From the NCBI RefSeq assembly GCF_012910715.1, contig NZ_JABBHF010000007.1:129001-193000 (forward strand): a stretch of 64,000 nt of DNA, in the 5' to 3' direction. Origin of the DNA: Flavivirga algicola (GTDB taxonomy: Bacteria; Bacteroidota; Bacteroidia; Flavobacteriales; Flavobacteriaceae). Of this stretch, positions 4,328-59,618 are shown piece after piece; within the stretch, counting starts at the first letter, position 1, and each line of letters begins with the position of its first letter. A program made the translations under genes and the position numbers. The notes below the pieces were generated by a model that did not search any database, was not told the origin of the DNA, and saw only the letters and a program-made list of their open reading frames with translations.

Positions 4328-4569
4328 TGGCCAAATACTTCACTAAATAAGTGTTGATAAAATAAAAGAATAACCTTTTTCTTTTATCTCTTTTTTCATC
4401 AATTAAGTTGATTTTTTGTAGCTTAAAAGCCTCTTTTAAGTAATCTTTTTTTTATTAAAAAATGCATTTTGTCGTATTTTATTTGCGTTTAATCGATAAA
4501 AAATGTAAAATTGCACATAATTGTAAGAAAGTACAATTTAAATTGTATAAAAATACTCATTATATACAG
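4328..4569. other. Intergenic leader of the giant adhesin gene
   Basis: AT-rich stretch of about 240 bases between the kinase remains and the signal-peptide start of the adhesin. The adhesin reading frame stays open back to 4462, but that extension ([16 protein letters not shown]...) precedes a good signal peptide and is best read as leader. I see no convincing terminator or operator. Confidence 0.4.
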
Positions 4570-7500: not shown

Positions 7501-10500
7501 TCAGCAGCAGATATTAATGTAGATGTTTTTGCACCGTCATCAGCTGGTTCAGATCAACAACTTTGCGAAGTAAATAGTGTTTTTTTGGAAGCTACCGAAG
7601 GAACTACAGGAACCTGGAGTATTGTTTCTGTTGATGGCGATACGACCCCAGGTGTGATAGCACCATATACACCAACCCAATCACCCAGTAACGGTAACAC
7701 AGCGAATGCTCCGGTAGATCCAGGCTCTGTATATGTATTTGAGTTTACAACAGATTACCCGACTCTGGCATGTAATAATAGCGATCAAGTGACCATAACT
7801 GTGAGTAGTGGTCCTAGTGAAGATGCATTGGCGGGGCCGGATCAGGAAATTTGTATGGACGATCCCACTACAGGAGCGAATACCACGGTGTCTTTAACCT
7901 CAGGTAATGCAAGTATTCCTGTAGATGTAACCTCAGAATGGCGATTGCTGTCCCAGCCAGGAGGTGCTACAGTAGGTTTTACAACACCTAATAATAGTAC
8001 CACAACCGATGTTACTGGTTTAACAGTGCCTGGCGTATATATTATAGAATTAAATTTTCAATCAAACTCCTGTATTGATAATGCAGATATCGTTAGAATA
8101 GAAGTGTTTCAAGCACCGACTCCAATTAATGCAGGGCCAGATCAAACCAATGCCTGCCAATTAGATTTCCTTACGGCAGCAACACCGCCTACCGTAGGCA
8201 TAGGAACCTGGACGATAACAAGTCATCCGGTAGGTTCTTCTAATACAGCAACAATTGACAATCCAAATAACCCAGCTACGAGTCTATCAGATATAGAATT
8301 AGGAACCTATGAATTAACCTGGACGGTATCCAATGGCCCTTTTGCTTCAGGACCATGTTCCCCGCAAATGGATACAGTAGAAATAACATTTACAGATAAT
8401 CCACCGTCACAAGCCATGGCTGGTCCCGATCAGGATTTATGTGATGAAACAGAAACATTTTTAAGTGCAACACCTTTGAGTTCCGGAACAGGAACCTGGT
8501 CACAAACAGGAGGTAACCTGGCAACAATTGCAGCAGCCAATAATCCGAATAGTTTAGTATTAGGACTTTCTGCTGGTATATATGAATTTACATGGACTGC
8601 CACTGGAGGGGGATGTACATCCGACGATGTCGTACAAATCATCATTCATGCAGATCCTGTAAGTGCAGAAGCTGGGGCCAATCAATCATTACCTGAATTC
8701 TCTTCTGTGACTTTAGGCGCAACATCACCACCAGTAGGATCAGGAGTTTGGATACAGCTTTCCGGGCCAACCTCTGTTGGTTTTGTTAACGATACAGACC
8801 CAGGAACAGCAGTAACAGGTACTACTGTTGGTACCTATGTTTTTGAATGGACTGTTAGTAGCGGAAATTGTAATATGGCCGCAGATCAGGTTACAGTGAC
8901 GATAAATCCTATATCCGATCTGGAACTAACAAAAAGTGTATTATCTTCCAGTGTTAACGCAGGAGATGTGGTAACATTTACAGTCGCTATTTTTAATAAT
9001 GATGCAAGTGCTACTAATTCTGATGCTACAGGTGTTACCGTCGAAGACGTCTTACCCTTAGGATATTCTTTAGTTCCAGGAACGGTATCAAATGGAGGTT
9101 CTTTTGACCTGGGGACACAAACTATAACGTGGTCTAACCTGTCCATTGTGAGCGGAACAACACTGAACTTAACATTTGATGCTACGGTTAATGGAACAGG
9201 TTCTTATGTAAATACTGCTCAAATTACAGCAAGTGACAATTTAGACCCGGATAGTGATCCTAGCACAGATAGTTCAGTAGATGAAGATGGTGATTTAGAC
9301 GGTGACGATGATGACGAAGACACCGCATCCGTAACTATACAATCCTCGGATTTGTCTATTCAAAAAGTAGCTAACGTCACTAATGTTAGTATAGGCGATA
9401 CGGTTATCTTTACATTAACTGTAACAAATTCGGGAGCAGATACCGCCACCAATGTTAGTGTTTCAGATCAATTACCTGTAGGTTTTACCTATCAAAGTGA
9501 TGACTCAGGCGGTAGCTATAGCTCGGGGACAGGCGTATGGAATGTCGGCAGTGTTACAACAGCAACACCTCGGGTATTAAACATTACAGCTACAGTGAAT
9601 GCACCAACAGGAGCAGCTAATGAATATCTGAATATAACCGAAATAATAGCAAGCGATCAACACGATCCAGATAGCACACCCAATAATGATGATGGAGACC
9701 AAAGTGAAGATGACGAAGACAGTGCTCAGGTCACTCTAGAGTTAGCGGACCTTCAGTTAACGAAAACCGTATTACCAGTTTCTGGTTCTGTGGGAGATAC
9801 AGTAACATTCTCTCTTTTATTGGAAAACTTTGGGCCTGGAGATGCTACAGGAATAGCTATTGAAGACTTATTGCCTACAGGATTCGAAGTCGTTCCGGGA
9901 ACCATTTCCGATTCAGGTATTTACGTCGTAGGAAACAAATCTATTGTATGGAATGATCTTTCTTTAAATAATGGACTTTCCAGAACGCTGACTTTCGATG
10001 CTACTGTGAATACATCTGGAAATTATACCAATAGTGCACAAATAACAGCCAGTGACCTGGATGATCCCGATAGTGATCCAGCTACAGACGAAACTGTGGA
10101 TGAAGATGGAGACTTGGATGGTGATGATGATGATGAAGATACAGTAACTTTTACAATATTACAATCCGACCTATCCTTGACCAAGGGCGTACAGAACGCC
10201 GTTACGGTCCTACCACCTAATATCGGTGATGTGATAACCTTTGAAGTCACGATAAGCAATGGCGGCCCAGACAATGCCACGGGCATATCGGTATCTGATA
10301 TCGTCCCATCGAGCTATGGCAACATCACCAATATCAGTAATGGCGGGGCGTTGATAGGGAGCACTATAAACTGGGGTGGCCTATCCGTAAACAACGGAGG
10401 AAGCCTGACGTTGACCTACGATGTAGAAGTGCTGGCCCCAACAGGCGCGGGAAGTGAGTACTTAAATATTGCAGAGATCACTGGTAGTGACCAGTTCGAT

Positions 10501-13500
10501 CCAGACAGTACCCCGAACAACGACGATGGCGACCAGAGCGAAGACGATGAGGCGAACTTTACAGTAACGCCCCAACAATCCGATTTAAGTATAGAAAAAG
10601 TAGTCAGCAATGAGACGCCAAATGTAGGCGGTACGGTAAGCTTTACGATCACAGTGACCAACTCAGGTCCATCAGATGCTACTGGGGTATCGGTAGCCGA
10701 TGTGGTACCATCCGGATATAGTGGCATCACCAATATAAGCGTTGGCGGTAGTTTGGGCGGCAGCACGATTACGTGGACGGGCTTAAGCGTCAGCACGACA
10801 GTACCAGTGGTATTGAGCTTTGATGCTGTGGTAGATGCCCCAACAGGAACAGCAGGTGAGTATGTAAACCAGGCACGTATCACTGCGAGCGATCAGTACG
10901 ATCCTGATAGTGACCCGAGTACTGATGAGACAACAGACGATCGAGGAGACGGTATTCCCGATGATGATGAAGACACGGCAAACGTTGTCCCACAATCTTC
11001 CGACCTAAGCATAGAAAAGACGATAAACGACACGACACCAGATGTAGGCGATACGGTCACATTTACCCTAACGGTCACCAATGCAGGTCCAGATGCAGCC
11101 ACTGGCGTATCGATAGAAGATGCCTTACCAAACGGATATACCTTGGTTACGGTCAACGATGGTGGTACAGGCGCTGCAAACACAGCAAGCTGGACAGGGT
11201 TGAGTATAGCAGCGAACAACGGGTCTATAAGTGTCACTTACACAGCCACGGTAAACGCACCTGGAGCAGGTGTTGGTTATACGAACGTCGCACAGATCAC
11301 AGCCAGCGATCAACACGATCCAGACAGTAGTCCGAATAATGACGATGGCGATCAAAGCGAAGATGACGAGGACAGCTTAACCATAGCACCCAATCAGGCA
11401 GATTTGTCACTTACAAAAATGGTTGTAGATAGCGATACTACCCCATTAATGGGCTCTGAAATTACATTTGAAATTAGAGTTTTTAATGATGGGCCTCAAA
11501 ATGCTACGGGTGTTCAGGTAAGAGACCTTTTACCATCAGGATATGACTATGTATTATATAGTTCAACAGCTGGTATATATGATGAAACCACAGGAGTTTG
11601 GGATGTTGGTAATGTGATAGCAGGTGGTTCACAAACCCTATTAATAGATGTACTGGTAAATGAAACAGGAGATTACCTTAATATAACAGAAGTGATAGCC
11701 TCTGATGTGTTTGATATAGACTCAAATCCTAATAACGATGATGGTGATCAAAGCGAAGATGATGAAGCTAGTGCAGTAACAGCACCAGTACAGCCTATGG
11801 CCGACCTGTCATTAACAAAAATAGTAGTAGATGGTGATACCACACCACTAATTGGTACGGAAATTACATTCCAGATTACTGTGACAAATGATGGACCACA
11901 AGATGCTACTGGAGTAGAAATTACGGACCTTTTACCATCTGGGTACGACTTTGTATTATTCAGTTCTACAGAAGGATCATATAATGAAAACACTGGCGTA
12001 TGGACCGTAGGTAATATAGCCAATAGTACCTCGGAGACTTTGTTAATAGATGCTCTGGTTAATCCGACAGGAGATTATTTAAATATTACTCAGATTACAG
12101 CTTCAGATGTTTTAGATATCGATTCAACACCAAATAATGATGATGGCGATCAAAGTGAAGATGACGAAGCTAATGCCATCGTAACACCAGTTGCATCGGC
12201 TGCCGATTTATCATTGACGAAACGTGTTGTAGATGGAGACGTTAATCCGGTAGTAGGTTCAGAAATTACATTCATCATTACAGTAACAAACGACGGACCA
12301 GAAGATGCTACAGGTGTGCAGGTGATCGATTTATTACCATCAGGATTCGACTTTGTATTATTTAGTTCTACTTCGGGAACATACGATGAAACAACTGGAA
12401 TTTGGAACATAGGAAATATTGCCAATGGTGGTACTGAAACCCTTTTAATTGATGTTTTGGTAAATGGAACAGGCGATTACTTAAATGTTGCAGAAATAAC
12501 AGCATCAGATATATTAGATCTGGATTCAACACCAAATAACGATGACGGTGACCAAAGCGAAGATGATGAAGCTAATGCCGCAGTGAATCCTGTAGATGCT
12601 GTTGCAGATTTATCGATACAAAAAACAGTAGTCGATAATGATATCATGCCTAATGTGGGTGATGAGATTACATTTAGAATTACAGTTAATAACGACGGAC
12701 CCGATGCGGCTACAGGCGTGGAAGTGATCGACGTTTTACCACATGGGTTTGATTTTATTCTTTATAGTTCTACCTCGGGGACTTATGATGAATCTAGTGG
12801 ATTGTGGACTGTTGGTACAGTACCAGCTAATGGGTCTCAAACATTATTTATCGATGTGTTGATTAATGACCCAACGGGAACTTCTGGAGAGTACTTTAAT
12901 GTCGCTCAAATAACAGGAAGTGATGTTTTAGATCCAGATAGTACACCTAATAATGACGATGGTGACCAAAGTGAAGATGATGAAGATGGGATCTTAATCT
13001 TAGTAGAAACAGCAGACTTAAGTTTAAACAAATCTGTTAGTGATGCCAATGCGAATGTTGGAGATATTATAATATTTACACTACAAATAGATAATACAGG
13101 TGTAAGTGTAGCAACAGGTGTTGCCGTTGAAGATATACTTCCGATAGGTTATAGCAATATATCCAATATTAGCAATGGTGGAGTACTATCTGGTAACACG
13201 ATTAATTGGACCAACTTAAGTATTCCTTTAACTGGTTTAACGCTTACTTATGAAGCAACCGTAAACATGCCAACGTTGCAAGACGATGAATATTTAAATA
13301 TAGCTCAAATTACTGCCAGTGATCAGTTTGATCCTAATAGTACACCAAATAATGATGATGGAGACCAAAGTGAAGGTGATGAAAGTGCTGTTAGAATCAA
13401 TACACCAACGGCAGATATTGCAGTATCAAAAGTGGTGAGTAATGCGAATCCAGCAATAGCCGAAACGATTGTATTCACTATTACAGCAGAAAATATAGGA

Positions 13501-14052
13501 AGTATGGATGCTACCTCTGTCGAGATTATGGATGCCTTACCGCAAGGTTATGGGTTTATTTCAGCATCAGCATCCTCCGGTACCTATAGCAATAATACGG
13601 GCATATGGAACATCCCTTTAATATCGGTTGGAACTACCGAAACATTGGAGATTACAGTTGAAGTTTTAGATATTAATGATTATGAAAACACAGCATCATT
13701 GGAGTTTTTAGATCAAATAGATTCTAATGAAAATAACGACACAAGTACCGTATCTATAATACCACAATGTTTAAGAATTTACAACGAGTTTTCACCAAAT
13801 GGTAACGGTAAAAATGAGGTGTTCTACATAGACTGTATCGCTAATTATCCTAATAACAAACTTCAAATATTTAATAGATGGGGTAATCTGGTTTATTATA
13901 AAGAGGGGTATGAAAATAGTTTTGATGGTGTTTCGAACGGAAGAGCCGTGCTAAACAAAAATGAAAAACTACCAGTAGGTACATACTATTACATATTAGA
14001 CTTAGGAGACGGTATGGAGCCTAGATCAGGGTGGTTATACATAGTCAGATAA
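4570..14052 (+). CDS. Giant secreted repeat protein (SprB-like adhesin, T9SS type B tail)
   Basis: About 3160 residues. I place the start at the ATG at 4570, where a signal peptide begins ([31 protein letters not shown]). The first half (to about 8.9 kb) holds about 15 Ig/PKD-like repeats of 85-110 residues. Each opens like NAGPDQT..C and closes like [10 protein letters not shown]. From 8.92 to 13.76 kb there are 12 DUF11-like repeats (opening SDLSLTK.V....VGD.VTFT.TV.N.GP). Most end in an acidic stretch such as [18 protein letters not shown] that probably binds calcium. The last 95 residues are a gliding-motility/T9SS type B C-terminal domain ([13 protein letters not shown]...[12 protein letters not shown]...[14 protein letters not shown]...GWLYIVR). 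Proteins of this build cross the outer membrane by T9SS and act as long surface adhesins. PorP/SprF and OmpA genes follow, the usual partners. Repeats 4-6 have much higher GC than the rest. Confidence 0.92.
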
Positions 14053-14099: not shown

Positions 14100-15017
14100 A
14101 TGAGCTTTAAATTAAAAACAATAATGGGTTTTGTTTTAATGTTGAATTTGTTAAAAACACAAGCACAGCAGGACCCGCAGTATACAGACTATATGTTTAA
14201 TACATTGACTGTAAATTCTGCTTATGCAGGTTCAAGAGGACATTTATCTATAACTGGGTTACATAGAACGCAATGGGTTGGTTTGGATGGTGCGCCAGAA
14301 ACACAATCCTTTAGTATAGAATCTCCAGTAGGCAAAAATGTAGGACTCGGTTTTTCTGTAATAAATGATAGACTCGGGCCTTCTGATGAGTTTTATTTTG
14401 ATACCAATTTTTCATACACAATCACACTTTATAATGAAAGTAAGTTTTCTTTTGGAATAAAAGGGGGAGGAAGGATGCTAAATGTAGATTGGTCGAGAGG
14501 TTCTTATCAGGAGCAAGAAGACGTTTTTCAACAGAATATAGAGAACAGGTTTTTACCAACGATCGGGGCTGGAGTGTTTTGGCACAATACGAATACCTAT
14601 GTAGGGTTATCAGTTCCAAATTTTCTAACCAACGAGCATTATGATGGCGTACAAAATGCTGTAGCGGCAGAGCGTTTGCATTACTTCTTAATAGCTGGTA
14701 AAGTTTTCGATTTAAGCCCTACAATCAAGTTTAAACCTGCTTTTCTCGGAAAGTTTGTCGTAGGAGCTCCTATTATTGTAGATCTGTCAGCTAATTTCCT
14801 GTTTCGGGACGCGCTAAGGTTGGGAATTGCTTACCGCTGGGATGATTCTGTTAGCGGACTCATTGGGTTACAACTATCACCTAAATTAATGCTGGGTTAT
14901 GCATACGATTACACGACAACCGATTTGCAGAGCTTCAACTCGGGAACTCATGAGATCATGTTGCGTTTTGAATTGAAATCAAAAGAAAAACAATTAAAAT
15001 CACCACGTTTCTTCTAA
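14100..15017 (+). CDS. PorP/SprF family outer-membrane protein
   Basis: 305 residues with signal peptide (MSFKLKTIMGFVLMLNLLKTQAQ) followed by the family hallmark QQDPQYTDYMFNTLTVNSAYAGSRG. The rest is alternating beta strands as expected for an outer-membrane barrel (for example AYRWDDSVSGLIGLQLSPKLMLGYAYDY). PorP/SprF proteins are needed for secretion or surface attachment of the T9SS type B adhesin encoded beside them; SprF does this for SprB in Flavobacterium johnsoniae. The gene starts 47 bases after the adhesin stop, and the OmpA-family gene follows after 14 bases, so the three are likely one transcription unit. Confidence 0.93.
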   Translation: MSFKLKTIMGFVLMLNLLKTQAQQDPQYTDYMFNTLTVNSAYAGSRGHLSITGLHRTQWVGLDGAPETQSFSIESPVGKNVGLGFSVINDRLGPSDEFYFDTNFSYTITLYNESKFSFGIKGGGRMLNVDWSRGSYQEQEDVFQQNIENRFLPTIGAGVFWHNTNTYVGLSVPNFLTNEHYDGVQNAVAAERLHYFLIAGKVFDLSPTIKFKPAFLGKFVVGAPIIVDLSANFLFRDALRLGIAYRWDDSVSGLIGLQLSPKLMLGYAYDYTTTDLQSFNSGTHEIMLRFELKSKEKQLKSPRFF

Positions 15018-15031
15018 AAATATTGAGACAT

Positions 15032-17032
15032 ATGAAAACTATAGTTACTATAATAATGTTTTGTGTAATAAGCTTTTCTTTTTCACAAAACGCCGTAAAA
15101 AAAGCAGACAGATTATTTGATACCATGTGGTATAAAGAGGCTGCAGTATTGTATGAGTTGGAGCTTAATAAGATAGAACGAAGAAATCAAGGAGGTGATG
15201 CCAATCATATCAGTCTTTTAAAGCGTGCTGGTGATGCTTATTTCTTCAATACTGATATGGATAATGCTTACAAATGGTATGATAAATTAGTATCAGGCTT
15301 TTACTCTGAAGTTGATGCCGAATATATATTCAGATATGCACATGCGTTAGAAGGTGTTGGGAAATATAGAGAAGCAAAACGTTGGATGAAGGAGTTTTCA
15401 AAAAGAACCCACAAAAAAGACAATAGGTCCCCTAAGTTGGATCAGAGAGGGTTAACTGTGGATGATATTTTAGATATTGCACCTAGGTTTACACTTAAAA
15501 ATGTATCTGTTAATACAAAATACTCAGACTTTGGGCCTATGTATTACAAAGATCAGTTAATTTATGCTTCAGCGGTGGACACGTCATATTATCACACACG
15601 AATATACCATTGGAATGAGCAACCGTTTTTAAACATGTATGTAGGTGAGCTTAATGAAATGGAGTCTGACCTTAAACACATCGATCAGTTTTCAAAGCTA
15701 ATAAACACAAGATATCATGAAGCCACTCTGGCCTTTTCACCAAATCAAAAGAAAGTATATTTCACAAGAAATAATTATAATGGAGATTTAAAAAGAGATA
15801 AAGAGGGTACAAATCATTTAAAACTTTATAGTGCAGAATTGTTAAAAGGTGAAGATAGTTTACATACATGGCAAAATATAAAAGAACTACCGTTTAATAG
15901 TGATGATTATTCGGTAGGCCATCCAGCTATTAGCAGTGATGGTAAATTACTATATTTTGTATCGGATATGCCAGGTTCAATAGGTGGTACGGATATTTTT
16001 GTAGTAGATATATTAGATGATAATAATAAGGATCTTACAGAATACTCAGGATATTCACAACCCCGAAATTTAGGAAAACATATTAACACGCCTGGTCGGG
16101 AAATGTTTCCATATATCACAGATAATGCTTTATATTTTGCATCAGATGGATATCTGGGTCTTGGAGGACTGGATGTTTATGAAAGTCGCATCGTAAATAA
16201 TCATTTTAATGAACCTGAAAATCAGGGAGCTCCATTAAATAGTGAGTTGGACGATTTTGGGTTTATTGTTAATGAAGAAAAAAATAGAGGTTTTGTCTGT
16301 TCAAACAGGTTATCCGGAAAGGGAGACGACGATATTTATTCCTTTGTTAGATATCCAAAAGGAGAGGCCTCCTGTTATCAGGCTATTAAAGGCTATATTT
16401 CCCATAATATTACAGGAGAACGTATAGCAGGTGTTCATATGTTTTTATTTGATGAGAATGGAAGGGAATTGGAAAAGACAACCACTAACATTAATGGGGG
16501 CTATGCGTTTAATACTTCATTAGATTGCTCAACAAAATTTATGATTAAAACAGAAAAAACAGGATATGGTCCTAGGGAAAAAGACGTACTCACACTGTCC
16601 AAAAGTGGAGAAACAGTTGTTCCTTTAGGGCTTGAAACGTTAAGCCGTTTAATTGTCGAGGAAGCAGGTGTCTTAAAAATTAAGATAGGCATTATCTACT
16701 TTAATTTAGATAAATCTTATATTCGACATGATGCTTCTGTAGAATTGAATAAAATTGTATTGCTGATGATGCAATATCCAAATATGGTCATTAAAATAGA
16801 GTCTCATACAGATTCTAGAAATACTGATGCTTACAATTTAGACTTGTCAGATAGAAGAGCCAAATCTACGAGAGATTATATAATTAGTCAGGGAATAGAA
16901 GCCAGTCGCATTGAAAGTGCAAAGGGCTATGGTGAATCACAGTTAATTAACGATTGTAAAGATGATGTCAATTGTTCGGAAGAAGTACATCAAGAGAATA
17001 GAAGGTCTGAGTTCATTATTATTAAGATGTAA
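15032..17032 (+). CDS. OmpA-family protein with TPR and PD40 repeats
   Basis: 666 residues. The ATG at 15032 is preferred over an in-frame TTG nine bases earlier because it opens the signal peptide (MKTIVTIIMFCVISFSFSQ). Order of domains: TPR-like helices to about residue 115; PD40/WD40-like beta-propeller blades at about 150-440 (repeated patterns such as SPNQKKVYFTRNNY, SSDGKLLYFVSDMPGSIGGTDIF); a carboxypeptidase-regulatory-like domain at about 450-535; an OmpA peptidoglycan-binding domain at about 555-665 (IESHTDSRNTDAYNLDLSDRRAKSTRDYI). It probably ties the adhesin/PorP assembly to the cell wall. It is third in the adhesin-PorP-OmpA unit and converges with the ATPase gene 61 bases downstream. 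Confidence 0.92.
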   Translation: MKTIVTIIMFCVISFSFSQNAVKKADRLFDTMWYKEAAVLYELELNKIERRNQGGDANHISLLKRAGDAYFFNTDMDNAYKWYDKLVSGFYSEVDAEYIFRYAHALEGVGKYREAKRWMKEFSKRTHKKDNRSPKLDQRGLTVDDILDIAPRFTLKNVSVNTKYSDFGPMYYKDQLIYASAVDTSYYHTRIYHWNEQPFLNMYVGELNEMESDLKHIDQFSKLINTRYHEATLAFSPNQKKVYFTRNNYNGDLKRDKEGTNHLKLYSAELLKGEDSLHTWQNIKELPFNSDDYSVGHPAISSDGKLLYFVSDMPGSIGGTDIFVVDILDDNNKDLTEYSGYSQPRNLGKHINTPGREMFPYITDNALYFASDGYLGLGGLDVYESRIVNNHFNEPENQGAPLNSELDDFGFIVNEEKNRGFVCSNRLSGKGDDDIYSFVRYPKGEASCYQAIKGYISHNITGERIAGVHMFLFDENGRELEKTTTNINGGYAFNTSLDCSTKFMIKTEKTGYGPREKDVLTLSKSGETVVPLGLETLSRLIVEEAGVLKIKIGIIYFNLDKSYIRHDASVELNKIVLLMMQYPNMVIKIESHTDSRNTDAYNLDLSDRRAKSTRDYIISQGIEASRIESAKGYGESQLINDCKDDVNCSEEVHQENRRSEFIIIKM

Positions 17033-17093: not shown

Positions 17094-20000
17094 CTATTTA
17101 TCTAAACCACGTTTCAAAACATTCTGTATACCCTCTAAATGTTCGCTAAATTGCATCATTTGAGCAAGAACTTGAGCCATTTCATTTTGATTTCCAAAAC
17201 CTTTAAGTTTATTGTTTTTGGCAAAAGTGTCTTTAATAGTCTGCCAGCGTTCAATTTCTGTAGCCTCTAAAGTTTTAGTTAGTTCTTTGTATTTTAATAA
17301 ATTAGCCTCAGCAGCACTTGTAAGTGTTTGCGATTCATTTTCGTAATGAGACAATAAAAGGGTTTCTAGCTCTTTATTATTCATAATGGGTACTACTTTA
17401 GCGACTAATTTACTCATATCCCGATAAGACCCCTGTAGTTTAAAGGAAGGCTCGGTGCGGTAATTGTCATCCATGGCTGCCGATTTGATATAGGTTTCAT
17501 TGACCTTTAATACGGTATCGCGAATGGTAACAACTTTATCTAATACTGCTAAATAATCCTGAATTTCTTGTTTTGTGTGATTACCCTTAAGTGCTAAATT
17601 GTCACGATTTCCAGATTCTACAACGTCTATTAACTGATAGATATCTTCAAAATATTTACTGCTTAATTGATGGAGAATAGGGTTGGAGGTTAGTGCGTTT
17701 TCAATTAGACTAAGTTTAAATAAATCTGCAGTATCACCAATAATATCTCCTAAATTATAAATATCTGCACGATTAGCCAACATATCTGGTATTTGAAATT
17801 TTTCTCCACTTTCTGTATAGGGGTTACCAGCCATTATAACACAAAACTTCTTACTGCGTAAATCGTAAGTTTTTGGCTTGCCATGATATACCCCTTCAAT
17901 TTTACGAGTACCATCGGCCAATGATATGAATTTTTGTAAAAACTCTGGATTACAATGCTGTATATCATCTAAATAGAGCATAACATTATTACCCATTTCA
18001 AAAGCCAAATTAAGCTTGTTCAGTTCTTCACGTGCTGCGGAGTTATTTGCGGTTAAAGGATCTACAGAGGTAACTTCATGGCCTATAGCAGGGCCATTTA
18101 TTTTCATAAATATAAGCCCTAAACGATTTGCCATATACTCCATCAAAGTCGTTTTTCCATAACCAGGAGGTGATATGAGTAATAACATTCCCATACGATC
18201 GGTACGTTTGTTATCTCCTACACTTCCTAATTGTTTGGATAAATTATCACCAAATAAGGGCAAATACACTTGATCTATAAGTTTGTTTCTTACAAAAGAG
18301 GAAAGTACTCTTGGTTTAAATTCCTCTAGTTTTAAATTTTCTTTTAATGTTTCAGTAACAGTATGCTTTGCTTCTCGATATGCATCGAATGCTGGTACTT
18401 CTATCGATGTGAAGTGTTGTAATTGACTTATGAAATGATGATAATTAAATTGAAAACGACCTTGGTTAATGGTAGGGTGACTGCCTTTCAAATTTTCAAT
18501 AAGAAATGAAGGACTTATTTGAATGGTTTCTGGGCTTGTCTCTCTTTTGTATAATATAATGGCAACAACTTCATAAGCATACTTTATATATTCGGGGGCT
18601 TGTAATTTTATAAAAGAACTTACCCATTGCATAACTAATTGTACGGTATCGGTAATTGTATATTTATCGTCTAAAGCAATTTCAAGAGATGTTTTAAAGG
18701 TAGAAACGGCATTTTTATTTTCTAAGGACTTTGAAAAGCTCTCATATAGTTCCTGGGCTGTTTTACTTACACAAAAGGTGTTGTTGCTTTGTAATTCATC
18801 AAATAAGTAGGAGGCTGTTTCAAACTCAAGTGTATTGTTGCGTTCTTCATAATCTTTAGAAATGATGCTATGAAGTGTAGATGCGCTTAATTCATGGCTT
18901 AGTGCCTCTATAACAATTTGATATTCTTTACTACTAGGAAAAGTAGCTAAAACCCCTCCTGAGGCTTTTATTTTTTGGTTCCACGATTTTTTGCTATCGA
19001 TATCTAGAGTATTCCAAAAGAACTGTCCGTAGGCTCTAACCATAGCTTCATAACGAAGTAGACCTAAATCTTGATGTTTACTAATTAAAATTTTTAAAAT
19101 TTTGGTTGCATCTTCATCATGAACACCTTTAATATAGCCTTCGGAATAGTTTTTACTGCTTTCGGTTTTTACAAGTTGAAACAATTCCGTTTCGTTAAGT
19201 TTGTCTATGTTTGGATACGAATTTGTGAAAATCTTATAAGCCAAATAAGACGATCTATATATGTTTTGGTTTTCTGATATTAATTCTTGATTCCAATATT
19301 TTTGAGATGTAATTAATGTGTCGTCTTCAATAGTTTGATAAAAATCGGTACCTGTAAGGTGGTATTTTAAAGTATCGTCTTTATAAACTATGGTTAGGTC
19401 TAAGGGCTGTTTGTTAACTCCAAATTTGTGTTTCCCTAGTTTGATAATATTTTCACCATCTTCATATAAATCTTGGGTATCTTTTAGTTTTCTAATAGCA
19501 TCCTCTTTGGCTACTTTAATCCCTGTTTCAATGGATTCGGCTTTTCCAGCATCATCTAAATCTTTAAGATTGGTTATGATATCGCGAAGTTTATTAATCA
19601 TTAGGTCTGAAGCAAAATACCCATTTATTTCAACCGTAGATTTAAAACTTAAGGCTTTTTTTGTGACCCCTTTTAAAATACGATTAGCAGCTGTCTCTAG
19701 GGTTATGGCTTTTTTATTTCTGGCTTCAATAAGACTGTTTTTTCTAGCTTCAAAAGCATTGTATACTTCTTCTCTTTTTTCAATGATTTGAGAAATAAAG
19801 TCTTCGAAATTTGCAAATCTGCCTTCTAAATCTTCTAATTGAACAGACACTTTGTTTAACAGCTCGTCTGTTTTTTCTGGAGTAGTAGCAATATCTAAGT
19901 AATTAATAATGCTTTGATCTATCAACTTTAGTTGTGCAGTAAATTCGGCTGAGGCTTCTTTTTCACCTAAAGCTTTCAATTTGTTTTTTAATCCTGCTTT

Positions 20001-21986
20001 AAGTTGGTTAATAGTAGCAAAGATTAGTGAAATATTATCAATGATTTGTGTGGAATGTGAGGCATCTTCTATTTCTAGGTTAGATACAATATCAATGAGC
20101 ATTTCCAAATCAGTAGCTATTTGGTTGACCTCTTCTTCTAATTTTTTTGCATCGATAACTTTTTTAATGTCCTCTAAAGCGATTTCTTTTTCTGCTACAC
20201 GCTTGTGGTAGGGTATAAGAGCCTTGTCGTTTAGTAGAAATTGAACACAACGTTGGGAAATTTTATCATTTTGAACTACAATATCTTCTTCTAGAGTCTT
20301 TATAAATGTAGTGTTTACATAGCGAATATCGTTTAAGCCAATAACTTCACCTCTAAGTGTTCTTAATTGTGATAGTACGGAGACGAAATCTTCTATAGAT
20401 TTGAATGTACTGCTTTTAATTTTTCCAAAAATACCATCTGCTTTAGCCTGTATGTCTTGGGTAATATCTGCTGCGGTTTTACGAAGCTGTACTACTTTTT
20501 CAAATTCATCAACAGCAGCGTTGGCAGCAGCATTTAATTCTTTTAAAGGTTCGTTAATAAGAAAGGTCTCTGGCTCTGTAATCCAATAATAGCTATTTAA
20601 AATATCATTAGAGAATTTACTAATGTCTGTATACAAACCGTCATAACTATCTTCTTTATTTAGAAGGGTTATCAAAGCTTGGCATTCGGCCATAGCCTTA
20701 ACAATGTCTTTGTTTCCTATTTTATATAATAGGGTATCGGTATGCTCAGAAGGAATAACATCTCCTTTAATAAACGGCGTTTGCCATATTTGAATTACAT
20801 GGTGTTTGGTCTGCTCGTCTTCGGTTTTAAAGTAGCAAAGTTCGCCACCATTTAGAATGGTGTAACCATTACAGATGATGGGCGTTTTTACCTGTTGTTC
20901 TATAACATTGTAAGACATCAATACATATAGACCTTTCTGGCTTTCATAAAACACATAAAGGAAATCTTCACCATTAGGAGAGCTTACCTTCTTTTTAAAC
21001 TTAACGTTGGAAATACCATTATCGAACAACTTAAAATCTCCGGACTGCAAATAATAGCCATCAGCAAAAATAATACCTTGGTCGTCTGGTAGTAACACGC
21101 ATGCATCTGCAATACTTTCTATCTTTTTTACTTCTTGTATTTTATGATTGTATACAAAATATCTTGGTTCTTCTTGAAACGGCTTAATTTCTAAGGCAAT
21201 TAAATTACCAAGGTCTGCATATTTATATTGGCCGTCGTCTAAGGTTTGGTCTGGGTGTGTTACGGGCTCGTCATAAATACCTTTACCATCATCTGTGTTA
21301 TCTTCTATTTTGATGGTTAAATCGCCTCCAACTGTTTCTACAAATATTTTGTCTAATATTGATATGTGTGGATGCGTGCCATATACATGATTCTCTCGTG
21401 TTGGTTCTACCCAATTAAATTCATGCTGATTTGGGAATTTAAACTCATGTTCACTTCGGTTATCGATATACTCAAGTGTACCGTCATTAATTAACCATTT
21501 AAATGTTTTTATATCTGTGATGCTTTCACTTAACTGAAATACCATATGCAGATAATTTCCAACGATGGCAAATTTTGTAAAAACTGTATTTCTATAATAT
21601 TTATAGAGATTGGTAAAATCATTTATAAAAGTATTGTCTTCTAACAGGTCTAAGGGTTGAATACTAAAGCGATCGTTGTCATAAATATAAATACTAAACA
21701 CGTCGGCAAGTGTTATGTCGGTACGAAGCCCAAAGTGTACATTATAACCAAATAAACAAATATCTCCTATGGTAACAATATCTCTTGCAATACAATTGTT
21801 TTCGGTATTAATGCGATTATTGGCAATCAGTTTAGTTTCAACATTACCAAAAACGTTTTTACGAGCATCATTTAATTGAGATAACCTTGAAAGAAGTTCG
21901 CTTTTTTGTTTTTGTAAGCGCCCTTGAATAATCTCATAAGTGCCTCCGTCTAGTTGTATATTATTGTCTGTATTGGTTTGTTCCAT
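17094..21986 (-). CDS. Giant coiled-coil AAA+ ATPase (annotated in relatives as DNA repair ATPase)
   Basis: 1630 residues, cytosolic, no signal peptide. Residues 1 to about 430 form a beta-rich domain (propeller-like, related to the DUF3686-type N-terminus of so-called DNA repair ATPases). Residues about 500-880 are long coiled coil. About 900-1230 is helical. The C-terminal AAA+ core has a Walker A at about 1271-1280 (LLLISPPGYGKTT), Walker B at about 1338 (VMLYLDDIQ), and a sensor-1-like VIMAGNPYT, giving it a MoxR-like look. The usual first Gly of Walker A is Ser here. It is the last gene of the minus-strand flotillin operon, 87 bases after the small gene. The 'DNA repair' name is traditional; a remodelling role at flotillin membranes is my inference. 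Family match confident, function open. Confidence 0.8.
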   Translation of the reverse strand: MEQTNTDNNIQLDGGTYEIIQGRLQKQKSELLSRLSQLNDARKNVFGNVETKLIANNRINTENNCIARDIVTIGDICLFGYNVHFGLRTDITLADVFSIYIYDNDRFSIQPLDLLEDNTFINDFTNLYKYYRNTVFTKFAIVGNYLHMVFQLSESITDIKTFKWLINDGTLEYIDNRSEHEFKFPNQHEFNWVEPTRENHVYGTHPHISILDKIFVETVGGDLTIKIEDNTDDGKGIYDEPVTHPDQTLDDGQYKYADLGNLIALEIKPFQEEPRYFVYNHKIQEVKKIESIADACVLLPDDQGIIFADGYYLQSGDFKLFDNGISNVKFKKKVSSPNGEDFLYVFYESQKGLYVLMSYNVIEQQVKTPIICNGYTILNGGELCYFKTEDEQTKHHVIQIWQTPFIKGDVIPSEHTDTLLYKIGNKDIVKAMAECQALITLLNKEDSYDGLYTDISKFSNDILNSYYWITEPETFLINEPLKELNAAANAAVDEFEKVVQLRKTAADITQDIQAKADGIFGKIKSSTFKSIEDFVSVLSQLRTLRGEVIGLNDIRYVNTTFIKTLEEDIVVQNDKISQRCVQFLLNDKALIPYHKRVAEKEIALEDIKKVIDAKKLEEEVNQIATDLEMLIDIVSNLEIEDASHSTQIIDNISLIFATINQLKAGLKNKLKALGEKEASAEFTAQLKLIDQSIINYLDIATTPEKTDELLNKVSVQLEDLEGRFANFEDFISQIIEKREEVYNAFEARKNSLIEARNKKAITLETAANRILKGVTKKALSFKSTVEINGYFASDLMINKLRDIITNLKDLDDAGKAESIETGIKVAKEDAIRKLKDTQDLYEDGENIIKLGKHKFGVNKQPLDLTIVYKDDTLKYHLTGTDFYQTIEDDTLITSQKYWNQELISENQNIYRSSYLAYKIFTNSYPNIDKLNETELFQLVKTESSKNYSEGYIKGVHDEDATKILKILISKHQDLGLLRYEAMVRAYGQFFWNTLDIDSKKSWNQKIKASGGVLATFPSSKEYQIVIEALSHELSASTLHSIISKDYEERNNTLEFETASYLFDELQSNNTFCVSKTAQELYESFSKSLENKNAVSTFKTSLEIALDDKYTITDTVQLVMQWVSSFIKLQAPEYIKYAYEVVAIILYKRETSPETIQISPSFLIENLKGSHPTINQGRFQFNYHHFISQLQHFTSIEVPAFDAYREAKHTVTETLKENLKLEEFKPRVLSSFVRNKLIDQVYLPLFGDNLSKQLGSVGDNKRTDRMGMLLLISPPGYGKTTLMEYMANRLGLIFMKINGPAIGHEVTSVDPLTANNSAAREELNKLNLAFEMGNNVMLYLDDIQHCNPEFLQKFISLADGTRKIEGVYHGKPKTYDLRSKKFCVIMAGNPYTESGEKFQIPDMLANRADIYNLGDIIGDTADLFKLSLIENALTSNPILHQLSSKYFEDIYQLIDVVESGNRDNLALKGNHTKQEIQDYLAVLDKVVTIRDTVLKVNETYIKSAAMDDNYRTEPSFKLQGSYRDMSKLVAKVVPIMNNKELETLLLSHYENESQTLTSAAEANLLKYKELTKTLEATEIERWQTIKDTFAKNNKLKGFGNQNEMAQVLAQMMQFSEHLEGIQNVLKRGLDK

Positions 21987-22073
21987 AGTTTTTACTTTAA
22001 TTGTAGCTCTATTTGTTAAGAATTACTCTTAAAATTTCTTTGTTTTGGCAGGAAGCTGATATCAAGTTTAAAA

Positions 22074-22508
22074 TCATTTTTTAGTCCTAAAAAGCTTTTC
22101 TAAAGGTGTTAAGTTTTTATCAGAAGACTGTTTTCTGCTTCTTGTATTAGGTATTATTTCTACAATAGCTGAATTCCAAATTCTATTTGTGAAAAAACCT
22201 TTAGAAAGACGATATTTTATAGAGTCACCTTCATAGGATGTCTTATAGGTATCGTAATTGCCTCTAATGATTATTTCGTCATCTGATTTATCTTTAATAA
22301 AAAACAAAAAACCATTCGGATCATATTCATTTACAGGAAAAACAATATTATGTCCTGAACGATTATTTCCTGAATAAGTTATTTTATCTACATATTTTTT
22401 TCCAATAATGATTCCACGATGATACTCGTTCTTTAAAAAAGAGCTATCGGCTAAGTAGAATAATATTGTAGCTGTAATTAATATTAAAATGATTTTTGTT
22501 TTCGACAC
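22074..22508 (-). CDS. Small membrane-anchored protein of unknown function
   Basis: 144 residues. A single N-terminal hydrophobic segment (residues 5-22, IILILITATILFYLADSS) is followed by a soluble, beta-rich, basic-tailed part facing the periplasm or cytoplasm (signal anchor rather than cleaved peptide). The soluble part contains a motif resembling a small barrel (RGIIIGKKYVDKITYSGNN, IRGNYDTYKTSYEGDSIKYRLSKG). I do not recognise a family. It lies between the flotillin gene and the giant ATPase on the same strand, which suggests a job in that system. A strong hairpin precedes it, so it may have its own expression level. Confidence 0.7.
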   Translation of the reverse strand: MSKTKIILILITATILFYLADSSFLKNEYHRGIIIGKKYVDKITYSGNNRSGHNIVFPVNEYDPNGFLFFIKDKSDDEIIIRGNYDTYKTSYEGDSIKYRLSKGFFTNRIWNSAIVEIIPNTRSRKQSSDKNLTPLEKLFRTKK

Positions 22509-22547
22509 GAAATACTTGAAGCTTCAAAAATTAAATTTCTTAGATAT

Positions 22548-22589
22548 ATCGTAGTCAAAACATACGTTTTTATAAGTTTTGACTACGAT
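22548..22589 (-). terminator. Strong intercistronic hairpin after the flotillin gene
   Basis: Perfect 14-bp inverted repeat ATCGTAGTCAAAAC / GTTTTGACTACGAT with a 14-base loop, beginning 17 bases after the flotillin stop on the minus strand. There is no clean T-run, so it may be a partial terminator, a processing site or an mRNA 3'-end stabiliser that sets flotillin above the downstream ATPase. Confidence 0.55.
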
Positions 22590-22605
22590 TTAGTTTGATA
22601 TGGGG

Positions 22606-24672
22606 CTACCCTAACTTCTTATCAGATAAGCCAAGTCCTTTAGCAAGGTTTGCTAGGTTATTGAATAAAGTTTCTTCATTGGTATCTGCGGTTTTAGATT
22701 TTAAATCCACTAGAAGATTAGCAACGGTTAGGTTTTTGATGTCTTCTGAAGAGATACCGTATTTAGTAGCAAAATCTTTTATTTTATCTAAAAGATTTCC
22801 CTTAACGTCTTCGCTCCCTAAAATAGCATCTTTAACCTGTGTAATATTATCTGAATGATTTACTAAGCGATCTATACCTTTAGACTTTGTAATTTGTCCG
22901 ATAATTTGATCGAAGAACATCGTTTCTCCACCAACAATATCAATATTTGCAGCTTTAAGAGCCGCACCAATCACATCAGCTTGTGCATCTGCAATTTCTT
23001 TTTGGATGTTAATTTCGGCTAAATCTACTTGTAATTCCTTGTCTAAACGTAATTTAAACTCTTCATGCTCTTTACCAACACCATCTAATTTTTTCATGGC
23101 GTTTGCTTTTTCTTCAATACCAGCAGCTTCGGCCAGGGCTTGTTCTTTTATTACTTCGGCTTGGGCGACACCTTCTTCTTTTACGGCTTCTGCTTTAGCT
23201 AAAATACCAGCAGCTTCCGCTTTGGCTTTTTCTTCAATAATAGATGCTTCTACCAGACCTTGACGTTCATTAGCGTCAGCTTTTGCATGCATCACTTGTG
23301 CTTCAGACATACCAATAGTTGCTTCTTCTTTAGCTTTGGCTTCGGCTAGTGTTTTTCTAGCTTGAGCTTCTTTTTCGCTGGCTTGTTTCTTCGCCTCTGC
23401 TTCAATATTAATTTCTTCTGCTTTTTGTTTTGCAGCTTCTTTTTCAGCTTCGGCAGCTTTTATTGTTTTAATTAATTCTTCTTGTGCATTCGCTTCTGCG
23501 ATTGTAATTTTTACTTGTTTTTCTCTATCGGCAGTTTTGAAAGCTTCAATATCTTTCATACTCTCTCGCTCTTCTACGACCCCTTTTTCTAACATCACTC
23601 TATCTCGAATAACGTCTTGAATATTTTTCTTTTCAACCTCTACAACTTTTTCTTTTTCAATTTGAGCCAGAGTGACAATACGTTCTCTTTCTGTAGCTTC
23701 CAGCATTCTATCTTTTTCTACGCGTTCTGTTTCTACCACATCGGTGCGCTGTTTGTTTTTAGCGGCTACAATTATTTGACGCGCCATGTTCTCTTCGGCT
23801 ACTTTTACTTTTTCTTCTGTGGAAATTCTGGCGCTTTCAGATTTTAAACGTTCTTCTTCGGCAACTTTCAAGGTTTCAGCATTTTCTCGAGCCTTTATAT
23901 TGGCAATTTCTCTTTTTTGTTGTTCTTCTTTTTCTGCTAATTGTTTGTCCAGCTCCAGTATGGCTTCACGAGCTTCTACATCTTGTTTGCGAATTACTTT
24001 CTCCTCATCACGTTTAATAAGGTTCGCTTTCATGTTTTGTTCTGCAGTGAGTTCTGTAATTTTTTTAATACCCTCGGCATCAAGAATGTTATCAGACTTT
24101 AAAAAACCAACAGGTGTTTGTTCTAGGTAATCGATAGCACAATCTTCTAAGGTATAACCGTTGAGGTCGGTACCAATAATATCTACAATTTCATCACGAA
24201 ACTCTCTACGTGCTTCATATAATTCAACAAACTGGAATTTTTTACCTACTGTTTTTAAAGCTTCAGAGAATTTAGCCTCAAAGAGTTCTTCTAAAGTCGA
24301 AATATCTGAGGCTCTTTCGCAACCTACCGTTTGTGCTACTTTTTTAATAAAATCTACTTCGTTATTTACTCTTACAAAAAATGCAACCTTAATATCGGCA
24401 CGCATATTATCTTTACATAATAAGCCATTATCTCCAATACGCTCAATTTGGATTTTCTTTACCGAAATATCCATGATTTCCACTTTATGAAATACAGGCA
24501 CCACATATAAACCCTTATCTGTTGCTACTTTTGTACCCTTAAAGCCTGTTCTTACCAAAGCTTCTCCCTGAGGAACTTTTTTATAGAATAAGGCAATAAT
24601 TGCAAAATAAATTATAATTAAGAAAAGAATAAGTCCAATGCCTATTCCAATAAATTGTGTGATGTGTTCCAT
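22606..24672 (-). CDS. Flotillin/SPFH family protein, YqiK type
   Basis: 688 residues. One membrane helix at residues 5-30 is followed by an SPFH/band-7 domain (about 32-215, including VPQGEALVRTGFKGTKVATDKGLYVVPVFHKVEIMD). A very long Ala/Glu/Lys-rich flotillin coiled coil runs from about 215 to 560 with many EAxA repeats. A helical tail at about 600-688 ends in LANLAKGLGLSDKK. Bacterial flotillins oligomerise on the inner membrane and organise ordered membrane patches. The gene follows the YqiJ-like gene by 69 bases, the order known for yqiJ-yqiK in Escherichia coli. It is longer than typical YqiK (about 550 residues) mainly through its coiled coil and tail. Regulation is not visible beyond the shared operon. 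Confidence 0.92.
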   Translation of the reverse strand: MEHITQFIGIGIGLILFLIIIYFAIIALFYKKVPQGEALVRTGFKGTKVATDKGLYVVPVFHKVEIMDISVKKIQIERIGDNGLLCKDNMRADIKVAFFVRVNNEVDFIKKVAQTVGCERASDISTLEELFEAKFSEALKTVGKKFQFVELYEARREFRDEIVDIIGTDLNGYTLEDCAIDYLEQTPVGFLKSDNILDAEGIKKITELTAEQNMKANLIKRDEEKVIRKQDVEAREAILELDKQLAEKEEQQKREIANIKARENAETLKVAEEERLKSESARISTEEKVKVAEENMARQIIVAAKNKQRTDVVETERVEKDRMLEATERERIVTLAQIEKEKVVEVEKKNIQDVIRDRVMLEKGVVEERESMKDIEAFKTADREKQVKITIAEANAQEELIKTIKAAEAEKEAAKQKAEEINIEAEAKKQASEKEAQARKTLAEAKAKEEATIGMSEAQVMHAKADANERQGLVEASIIEEKAKAEAAGILAKAEAVKEEGVAQAEVIKEQALAEAAGIEEKANAMKKLDGVGKEHEEFKLRLDKELQVDLAEINIQKEIADAQADVIGAALKAANIDIVGGETMFFDQIIGQITKSKGIDRLVNHSDNITQVKDAILGSEDVKGNLLDKIKDFATKYGISSEDIKNLTVANLLVDLKSKTADTNEETLFNNLANLAKGLGLSDKKLG

Positions 24673-24741
24673 AAGTTAATATTTGATTTTTAAATTGATT
24701 TAAAATTATTATATATATTTTGTTAATTGACTTTGTTTGAT

Positions 24742-25473
24742 TTAAACAGGCTTTGTCTCATCATCTTCGTAGGGAAACACCCAATAAAAATTTTTATCTT
24801 CAGACTGCCTAACAATGACAATGTTTTGTCGGTAGCTAATTGTTTTACCATCAAAAGATTTTGCATATATAGACATAGGGTTTCCATCTGCCACCACTTC
24901 TGCGGCTCCCATTTTTTCTCCAGAAATTTTTGATAACATAATACCTTTTCTGCCCGTTAAATTTATAGGCAAATCACCGTCTTTATTTAAGTTTTTAAAA
25001 AAGCTTTTAAAAGGAGTCGTAATAATTTTAGTTAGAATTAAGGAAGGCAATATGCCTGCTAATAATAATGTATACCCAAAACTAGTATTGTAGGATCCCG
25101 TAATGCTTGTAGAAATGACAGTGCATAGCCACCATATAAAAACCCAACAGGTAAATGTGAACATAAATGGTAGGCCTACAAAATTAAAGTAGATTAATAC
25201 CATTTGCCACCATTCCAATTTTTTTCTTTGGTCTCTAACAATATCTTCTTTATTGATTTCAACATTAGCAATATCGGGAAGGTTTGTAATGCTACCTAGA
25301 TTGGTATTTACATCGACATCCACATCTGCATCAATATCTACATCGATGTCTACATCTACATCAAAATCAATTCCAGAAATCATGGTGAATAGCCAATAGA
25401 TGATAAGTAATATAACAAGGAGGCTTAAAACAATATTTACAGAAGAAAAAGCAATTTCAATAATCGAGTTCAA
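24742..25473 (-). CDS. OB-fold inner-membrane protein, YqiJ/NfeD-like
   Basis: 243 residues. TM1 lies at about 8-33, then a striking alternating Asp/hydrophobic run (DFDVDVDIDVDIDADVDVDV, about 36-55). Two or three further membrane helices follow at about 90-160 (MVLIYFNFVGLPFMFTFTCWVFIWWLCTVI; YTLLLAGILPSLILTKII). The C-terminal beta domain (about 175-240, INLTGRKGIMLSKISGEKMGAAEVVADG...) fits an OB fold. YqiJ/NfeD proteins are the standard partners of YqiK flotillins and are thought to tune the flotillin assembly at the inner membrane. It is the first gene of the four-gene operon; the promoter should lie between 25474 and about 25650. Confidence 0.82.
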   Translation of the reverse strand: MNSIIEIAFSSVNIVLSLLVILLIIYWLFTMISGIDFDVDVDIDVDIDADVDVDVNTNLGSITNLPDIANVEINKEDIVRDQRKKLEWWQMVLIYFNFVGLPFMFTFTCWVFIWWLCTVISTSITGSYNTSFGYTLLLAGILPSLILTKIITTPFKSFFKNLNKDGDLPINLTGRKGIMLSKISGEKMGAAEVVADGNPMSIYAKSFDGKTISYRQNIVIVRQSEDKNFYWVFPYEDDETKPV

Positions 25474-59191: not shown

Positions 59192-59461
59192 TTATTTTCT
59201 TAATCCTAATTCTTTTACTATGGCACGATATCTTAAGATATCTTTCTTAGTTAAGTAATCTAGTAAAGCGCGACGCTTTCCTACTAGTTTTACTAATGAA
59301 CGCTCAGTATTGAAATCTTTACGATTGTTTTTTAAGTGTTCTGTTAAGTGATTAATTCTGTAAGTAAACAATGCAATTTGTCCTTCTGCAGAACCTGTGT
59401 CTTTTGCACTTTTACCATGTTTTTTAAAGATGGCTTCTTTTTCTTTTTGATCTAAATACAT
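59192..59461 (-). CDS. rpsO: 30S ribosomal protein S15
   Basis: 89 residues, the standard S15 length, when started at the ATG at 59461 (MYLDQKEKEAIFKKHGKSAKDTGSAEGQIALFTYRI). A longer frame upstream (19 residues) has no S15 counterpart and is leader. The protein has the conserved HLKNNRKDFNTERSLVKLVGKRRALLDYLTKKD and binds the central domain of 16S rRNA in assembly of the small subunit. Confidence 0.97.
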   Translation of the reverse strand: MYLDQKEKEAIFKKHGKSAKDTGSAEGQIALFTYRINHLTEHLKNNRKDFNTERSLVKLVGKRRALLDYLTKKDILRYRAIVKELGLRK

Positions 59462-59618
59462 GCTAATATTATTGTAAATAATTGTTATGTAAACGAAAGT
59501 TTCTCTTTCGAGCGGCAAATATAGTAATTTTTAATGATTTGCAAGAGCAATATCTTGTAAAGAAAGAAAACGGCAATTTAAACTAGGTTTATCATTTAAA
59601 TGGGATATGGTGAAAATC

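What the first reader, a model, noticed from the sequence alone, without database searches (positions are those of the whole stretch)
17094..25473. Four-gene flotillin/OB-fold/giant AAA+ ATPase operon
YqiJ-like and YqiK-type flotillin proteins are joined to a 1630-residue ATPase with a beta-rich N-domain, a long coiled coil and a MoxR-like AAA+ core, plus a small anchored protein. Association of such ATPases with flotillins is seen in bacteria, but the joint function is not established as far as I know. The architecture suggests a membrane-bound remodelling or stress/defence machine: flotillin scaffold, membrane tuner, large ATPase motor. This is my main candidate for an undescribed system.
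Basis: partly seen in the sequence, partly recalled or inferred. Interest (0 to 1): 0.7.

Follow-up and report, generated by a model that had tools for sequence, protein, structure and literature searches.

The report
Flotillin–AAA+ ATPase operon without PspA
This bacterium carries a known but uncharacterised set of genes, a membrane scaffold protein (flotillin), its small membrane partner and a giant ATP-driven remodelling protein, and in its lineage the set persists although PspA, the membrane-repair protein it usually travels with, was not found, which offers a natural way to separate the two.

Summary
The genes are real and at the stated coordinates. The core is three genes: a YqiJ/NfeD-like protein, a YqiK-type flotillin and a 1630-aa ATPase with a DUF3686 propeller, helical middle and MoxR-like AAA+ module. 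The operon type is not undescribed: Ravi et al. 2024 (PMC11237479) describe it, often joined to a CesT/Tir-PspA dyad, and suggest that shorter forms use PspA encoded elsewhere. I tested that. In 199 genomes of the window's family, 15 of 19 DUF3686 genomes have PspA, against 2 of 180 others. The window genome and the three other members of its ATPase clade that were checked (a congener, Hyunsoonleella pacifica, G122) gave no PspA or CesT/Tir, yet the core stays under strong purifying selection (dN/dS about 0.05, window against congener). Of 32 loci without adjacent PspA whose genome was searched, 13 had none. Flotillin lies near the ATPase in 95 of 97 loci with enough upstream sequence. The small fourth gene is a lineage-restricted passenger in a recurrent insertion slot. 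Best reading: a flotillin-scaffolded AAA+ remodeller to which PspA is an optional module. I found no positive sign of a defence role. Client and phenotype remain unknown.

The parts
24742..25473 (-). YqiJ/NfeD-like membrane protein (243 aa): TM, acidic DxDxD stretch, further TMs (by eye), C-terminal domain in the place of the OB fold
   Evidence: ORF; family profile vs E. coli YqiJ; 7 of 20 members match YqiJ_N, 3 NfeD; PDB YuaF only at E 0.03
22606..24672 (-). YqiK-type flotillin (688 aa): N-terminal TM (by eye), SPFH region, long coiled coil
   Evidence: profile vs E. coli YqiK E 8.3e-41; Band_7 matched in 3 of 22 relatives, not in the window copy; one match to the family profile in the genome
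22074..22508 (-). small membrane-anchored protein (144 aa), judged a passenger in the flotillin-ATPase slot
   Evidence: found in window, two congeners and one Aquimarina locus, weakly in G191; diverges much faster than the core
17094..21986 (-). DUF3686 AAA+ ATPase (1630 aa): propeller ~30-467, helical/coiled-coil ~468-1220, MoxR-like AAA+ ~1221-1560 (bounds approximate)
   Evidence: in 13 of 13 aligned homologues 1272-1279 (Walker A), 1338 and 1340-1344 (Walker B), N1388, R1406 and R1522 are invariant; motif names recalled

Best explanation
This is a PspA-free form of the DUF3686-flotillin-YqiJ operon. The YqiK-type flotillin, with its YqiJ/NfeD partner, most likely forms an oligomeric scaffold at the inner membrane. 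The DUF3686 protein most likely docks on it through its propeller and helical arm and uses a MoxR-like AAA+ ring to remodel or disassemble clients gathered there (misfolded or over-assembled membrane-associated proteins), as part of envelope-stress maintenance. CesT/Tir-PspA is an optional client/sensor module that this lineage has most likely lost. Shown: gene identities, co-occurrence, intact ATPase motifs, no PspA or CesT/Tir found, continued purifying selection. Inferred: direction (loss rather than gain), physical docking, hexamer, client type, stress role.
For: Flotillin near the ATPase in 95 of 97 loci with >=3 kb upstream, NfeD-like in 92 of 95 with >=4 kb, PspA in only 58 of 93 with >=7 kb; the genomes of the two loci without nearby flotillin (L108, L154) have matches to the flotillin profile elsewhere. 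No PspA over or under cut-off with Pfam PF04012 in G000, G019, G122 and H. pacifica (G484); a profile from the operon's own PspA gave only a 44-residue hit at E 0.018 in G122; the CesT/Tir profile only E 0.15 in G019. Both profiles found 5 of 5 control genomes, one of which (G100) contributed a sequence to the profiles. The four rows form one clade (local support 100), nested among PspA-bearing relatives. dN/dS window vs congener: ATPase 0.056, flotillin 0.050, NfeD-like 0.10. Only one site conserved in >=95% of PspA-linked ATPases is changed in all six ATPases of this clade (four of them genome-checked), against 0, 0, 0 and 7 in four PspA-bearing control clades. Analogies (abstracts only): HflK/C with AAA+ FtsH, FloA-NfeD holding unfolded proteins, YdjI anchoring PspA.
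Against: In this family PspA and DUF3686 are tightly linked (15 of 19 vs 2 of 180, Fisher p 3.7e-17, not corrected for kinship), which argues that PspA is a usual functional partner. No interaction was predicted or measured. The window flotillin has no Pfam Band_7 match on its own. G000, G019 and G122 are drafts of 37, about 80 and about 120 contigs and could hide a gene in a gap; completeness of G484 is not given. Locus sampling favours close relatives (best 80 of 588). By E-value the top fold matches of the C-part are dynein heavy chains, at low TM.
Confidence: 0.5

Rival explanations
1. The ATPase is chiefly a Vps4-like disassembler of PspA (bacterial ESCRT-III) polymers, and PspA-less genomes are transitional or use an unrecognised ESCRT-III-like protein.
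For: Tight PspA co-occurrence, PspA nearby in 58 of 93 loci, spastin and Vps4 AAA domains among the structural matches; close to the reading in PMC11237479.
Against: 13 of 32 loci without adjacent PspA lie in genomes with no PspA match; no sign of relaxation of the ATPase without PspA; MoxR-type CbbQ/NorQ score higher than Vps4.
Confidence: 0.22
2. All four genes form one machine, the 144-aa anchored protein being a real lineage-specific subunit.
For: Same strand and order in window, G019 and G536; dN/dS 0.22 window vs G019, a rough value since dS is 1.5.
Against: Absent beside the same core in congener G535, H. pacifica and G122; the window copy is 55% identical to those of G019 and G536, whose ATPases are 91% and 88% identical to the window's, while those two copies are 92% identical to each other; elsewhere the slot holds DUF559, GIY-YIG, Y1_Tnp and putAbiC genes.
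Confidence: 0.1
3. Anti-phage defence system.
For: Patchy distribution (19 of 199 in the family draw, 4 of 12 in the genus), 12 of 72,556 plasmid records, putAbiC in one slot.
Against: No meaningful PADLOC match of the four proteins; no PADLOC family in more than 2 of 136 neighbours; whole-length conservation at 34-47% identity from Hymenobacter to Deinococcus and Streptomyces.
Confidence: 0.06
4. A DNA-repair ATPase, as the database name says.
For: Pfam and RefSeq naming; RuvB among weak AAA matches; a HTH + S24-like regulator beside the dyad in relatives.
Against: Membrane partners in nearly all loci; RuvB sequence matches are limited to the P-loop and below cut-off; the S24 catalytic serine seems not conserved (by eye, motif recalled).
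Confidence: 0.05

Closest known systems
CesT/Tir-PspA + band-7/flotillin + propeller AAA+ + YqiJ operon, and its abbreviated forms (Ravi et al. 2024, PMC11237479)
   Same: YqiJ-like TM protein, flotillin, AAA+ ATPase with N-terminal propeller and coiled coil in one operon
   Different: No CesT/Tir or PspA found in the operon or, as far as searched, anywhere in the genome; no HTH/S24-like regulator of the usual kind in the window; an extra 144-aa gene
E. coli YqiJ-YqiK
   Same: Homologous membrane partner and flotillin in the same order
   Different: E. coli K-12 has no DUF3686 ATPase next to them, and DUF3686 gave no hit in the 14 control genomes, E. coli among them
HflK/C-FtsH
   Same: SPFH scaffold working with a AAA+ ring (abstract)
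   Different: Different SPFH and AAA+ families; no protease domain matched in the window ATPase
MoxR AAA+ (CbbQ, NorQ)
   Same: Closest compact AAA+ folds (target-normalised TM up to 0.58)
   Different: Far larger N-terminal part; a vWA partner, usual for MoxR (recalled), was not searched for

Membership tests
DUF3686-flotillin-YqiJ operon (abbreviated form of Ravi et al. 2024) | AAA+ ATPase with N-terminal propeller and coiled coil (DUF3686 type) | tested here: met
   that the paper's ATPase is DUF3686 is my inference from its description and gene order
DUF3686-flotillin-YqiJ operon (abbreviated form of Ravi et al. 2024) | adjacent flotillin and YqiJ-like gene, same strand | tested here: met
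CesT/Tir-PspA class of that operon | CesT/Tir-PspA dyad in the operon | tested here: not met
CesT/Tir-PspA class of that operon | PspA elsewhere in the genome (suggested for abbreviated forms) | tested here: not met
   Searches (PspA; CesT/Tir): no match in G000
SPFH/flotillin (YqiK type) | SPFH domain | tested here: met
   one search aligns residues ~20-442 with YqiK; Band_7 in 3 of 22 relatives, none in the window protein itself
SPFH/flotillin (YqiK type) | oligomeric membrane scaffold | not testable with these tools
   needs biochemistry
YqiJ/NfeD partner family | TM region plus C-terminal OB fold | tested here: inconclusive
   weak profile matches; no model made
MoxR AAA+ | MoxR-type AAA+ core with Walker A/B, sensor 1, arginine finger, sensor 2 | tested here: met
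   motif roles assigned from recalled consensus; AAA_5 above cut-off, but RuvB and spastin also match
Anti-phage defence system | match to a known defence family or defence-island context | tested here: inconclusive
   no family match; neighbours not recurrently defensive, enrichment not quantified
Bacterial ESCRT-like system (PspA + AAA+) | an ESCRT-III-superfamily protein | tested here: not met
   for PspA/IM30 only; Snf7-type proteins were not searched

The most novel reading that the evidence does not exclude
The DUF3686 protein is a dedicated ATP-driven remodeller of flotillin/NfeD scaffolds, a membrane-microdomain chaperone machine analogous to FtsH on HflK/C but without proteolysis, whose ESCRT-III partner PspA is detachable; the window's clade runs it with no PspA at all.
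Probability: 0.35. Interest if true: 0.65.

Novelty: new variant of a known kind. Interest (0 to 1): 0.45.

Why it matters
How bacterial flotillins and the PspA (ESCRT-III-like) system are powered and connected is open. A lineage that kept the flotillin-ATPase core where no PspA can be found separates the two, and lets one ask directly whether the AAA+ motor serves the flotillin or PspA. It also tests the published suggestion that PspA-less operons rely on PspA encoded elsewhere: in 13 of 32 such loci no PspA was found in the genome, in 16 it was.

Tried and rejected
The 144-aa gene as a core subunit: rejected. The defence reading: no support. The PADLOC neighbour scan is not a clean test: one protein can match many models (144 families from 136 neighbours, 18 from 70 more distant genes) and the tool gives no count of proteins with any match. 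A mobile-cassette reading: only partly supported; G019 and G536 share flanks with each other but not with the window, while G535 has two genes downstream that in the window lie about 15 kb from the ATPase, so descent with rearrangement is as likely. Promoter and terminator scans: no clear excess over shuffles. PDB sequence search with the ATPase profile: no hit at E 0.01. Literature: 'DUF3686' is in 0 papers of the library; 'DNA repair ATPase' is in 48 papers, of which 20 were listed, none evidently on this protein by title or abstract start; other searches. Papers: PMC11237479 section 19 read in full plus passages; PMC2636767, PMC13086221 and PMC10936438 passages; PMC13220708, PMC8581546 and PMC11222466 abstract and outline.

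Full report
Observation. The 1630-aa protein is a DUF3686 protein (Pfam E 4.2e-183) with AAA_5 and AAA matches over cut-off. AlphaFold models made from window and named-relative sequences give a confident beta-propeller-type N-domain (residues 1-520, mean pLDDT 88.4; the leading Foldseek hits include WD40 and other propellers, with low TM-scores, so the blade number is not settled). Residues 431-1630 give a helical arm and AAA+ fold (mean pLDDT 83.1, pTM 0.55). Dynein heavy chains rank first by E-value at low TM; the best compact AAA matches are CbbQ and NorQ, of the MoxR group (target TM up to 0.58), with RuvB, spastin and Vps4 lower. Walker A (1272-1279), Walker B (1338 and 1340-1344), N1388, R1406 and R1522, which I assign from recalled consensus to sensor 1, arginine finger and sensor 2, are invariant in 13 of 13 aligned homologues.

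Partners. The 22-member flotillin alignment matches E. coli YqiK at E 8.3e-41; the 20-member alignment of the 243-aa protein matches YqiJ at 92% probability. Taken alone the window copies match no Band_7, NfeD or YqiJ model.

What is known. Ravi et al. 2024 (PMC11237479; [quoted passage not shown] So the system is not undescribed. Hinderhofer et al. 2009 (PMC2636767, passages) describe YqiJ/YqiK-type operons; 'ATPase' has 0 and 'AAA' 1 occurrence in that text.

Neighbourhoods. The named set is the best 80 of 588 relatives found, so it leans to close relatives. Counting only loci with enough upstream sequence: flotillin 95 of 97 (94 on the ATPase's strand), NfeD-like 92 of 95, PspA 58 of 93, CesT/Tir 56 of 93, a divergent HTH regulator 58 of 92. 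One Leeuwenhoekiella ATPase occurs twice (L033 and L088). The two loci lacking flotillin, L108 and L154, lie in genomes that match the flotillin profile elsewhere. On pQBR103 the set sits behind YjfI, PspA, rhomboid, DUF2491, DUF350, DUF1190 and glutathionylspermidine synthase genes.

PspA test. Two searches of a 199-genome draw of the window's family (the handles listed agree) found DUF3686 in 19 and PspA over the cut-off in 17. Fifteen have both; 4 of 19 DUF3686 genomes lack PspA (G000, G019, G122, and G079, which is 81% complete and whose locus is cut); 2 of the 180 others have PspA, or 6 of 180 if four matches below the cut-off are counted. Fisher p for 15/4/2/178 is 3.7e-17, uncorrected for kinship. 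Of the 26 DUF3686 genomes of the family and phylum draws (8 of 296 in the phylum draw, G000 counted in both), 22 have PspA. A profile from the operon's own PspA gave no match up to E 1 in G000, G019, G484 (H. pacifica), G513, G518, G510, G486, G488 and G485, and only short weak hits in G122 (44 residues, E 0.018), G504 (E 0.025) and G489 (E 0.003). The CesT/Tir profile gave no match in G000, G122, G484, G518, G504, G510, G486, G488 and G485 and weak hits in G019 (E 0.15), G489 and G513. Both found all 5 control genomes; G100 contributed to the profiles, the other four did not. Among 44 genomes of named loci (43 with no PspA seen beside the ATPase, some of these loci being cut, plus L082 as control) 22 are over cut-off, the control included, 4 only below it, and 18 have none. 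Keeping loci with at least 7 kb upstream, no PspA there and a searched genome leaves 32: 16 with PspA elsewhere, 3 with only sub-cut-off matches (L099, L152, L158), 13 with none (window, L026, L027, L083, L098, L123, L135, L137, L140, L145, L148, L153, L156). Three plasmid loci were left out because no genome was searched. Several of the 13 are metagenome assemblies, and completeness is told only for G000, G019 and G122 (99-100%). L137 and L148 have the ATPase split into two ORFs.

No decay. On a FastTree tree of 109 ATPases the window, G019, H. pacifica and G122 form one clade (local support 100) beside L082 (Aquimarina latercula) and L032 (unnamed), which carry the dyad, and L101, whose genome has PspA elsewhere. 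Loss of the dyad is therefore more likely than gain elsewhere, but the tree does not prove direction. In that tree's labels L099, L146 and L152 (sub-cut-off matches) stood under 'none', L158 (also sub-cut-off) under 'elsewhere', and L148 was too short to enter. dN/dS window against G019 by NG86 is 0.056 (ATPase), 0.050 (flotillin), 0.10 (NfeD-like); the 144-aa protein gives 0.22 with dS 1.5, and the other core-gene pairs have dS above 1 or failed, so they are rough. Only one position (464, D to N) conserved in >=95% of PspA-linked ATPases is changed in all six of the clade; control clades gave 0, 0, 0 and 7.

The fourth gene. It occurs in the window, G019, G536 and one Aquimarina locus, weakly in G191 (E 3.3e-4; 3 of 199 genomes in all), and is absent beside the core in G535, H. 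pacifica and G122. The flotillin-ATPase interval exceeds 400 bp in 26 of 100 loci; of five slot proteins tested that are not this gene, four match DUF559, GIY-YIG, Y1_Tnp and putAbiC above cut-off and one DUF3592 below it. I read it as a tolerated insertion slot.

Mechanism. The constant partner is flotillin; the optional one is PspA. The simplest model is a flotillin/NfeD scaffold that concentrates clients at the membrane and a AAA+ ring that remodels them. The analogies are HflK/C-FtsH (abstract), FloA-NfeD holding unfolded proteins (abstract) and YdjI anchoring PspA (abstract). Docking, oligomer state, client and phenotype are inference.

Neighbours and mobility. No relative was found in phage records or viral contigs; 12 of 72,556 plasmid records have one. 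The 25 of 165 Pfam families shown for 136 neighbours occur in at most 3 of 136 each and look mostly housekeeping.

Verdict. A real, conserved gene set of a type already in print. New here are a clade that keeps it where PspA cannot be found, a test and partial contradiction of the published suggestion, and demotion of the small gene. Function remains to be shown.

Noticed in passing
L025 9671-11258, L032, L033, L050, L089, L096, L101, L125, L138, L158 (between flotillin and ATPase): The flotillin-ATPase gap repeatedly holds small nuclease- or transposase-like genes (DUF559, GIY-YIG and Y1_Tnp by Pfam in L025, L033, L096; the others by eye), an apparent insertion hot spot inside an operon.
   Followed up: partly
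L028:5330-6088 and relatives, 58 ORFs in the labelled loci: A divergent HTH_3 regulator, with a S24/LexA-like C-domain in one of the two tested that seems by eye to lack the catalytic serine, sits beside the CesT-PspA dyad; it is kept in Chryseobacterium balustinum (L145) and C. aahli (L153), where the dyad is gone.
   Followed up: partly
L021 (pQBR103 82452-107326): A plasmid joins YjfI-PspA, a polyamine-related cluster and the YqiJ-flotillin-DUF3686 set in one run of genes.
   Followed up: no
G016:C20:7352-8035 and G180:C52:76293-76976: The only 2 of 180 DUF3686-less genomes of the family draw with a PspA over cut-off; context not looked at.
   Followed up: no
L024; L137; L148: The Proteus mirabilis 'plasmid' record with the operon is about 4.1 Mb and looks like a mislabelled chromosome; the ATPase gene is split in two ORFs in L137 (Dysgonomonas capnocytophagoides) and L148.
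   Followed up: no
24742-25473 (NfeD-like protein, around residues 30-55): An acidic Asp-x-Asp repeat after the first TM segment, seen in many relatives in the alignment; possibly cation binding.
   Followed up: no
flank proteins in alignment A8: Two of 136 neighbours match RlaP, an RNA-repair-associated family; the P. aeruginosa SPFH gene paFlo8 lies in an rtc RNA-repair locus (PMC13086221, passage).
   Followed up: no
4462-14052 and 14100-17032: A 3196-aa repeat-rich surface-type protein next to a 305-aa and an OmpA-like 669-aa protein, PorP/gliding-type by my own reading of the sequence.
   Followed up: no
59459-59523 and 2413-2486: S15-Flavobacteria ribosomal protein leader and a tRNA gene.
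   Followed up: no
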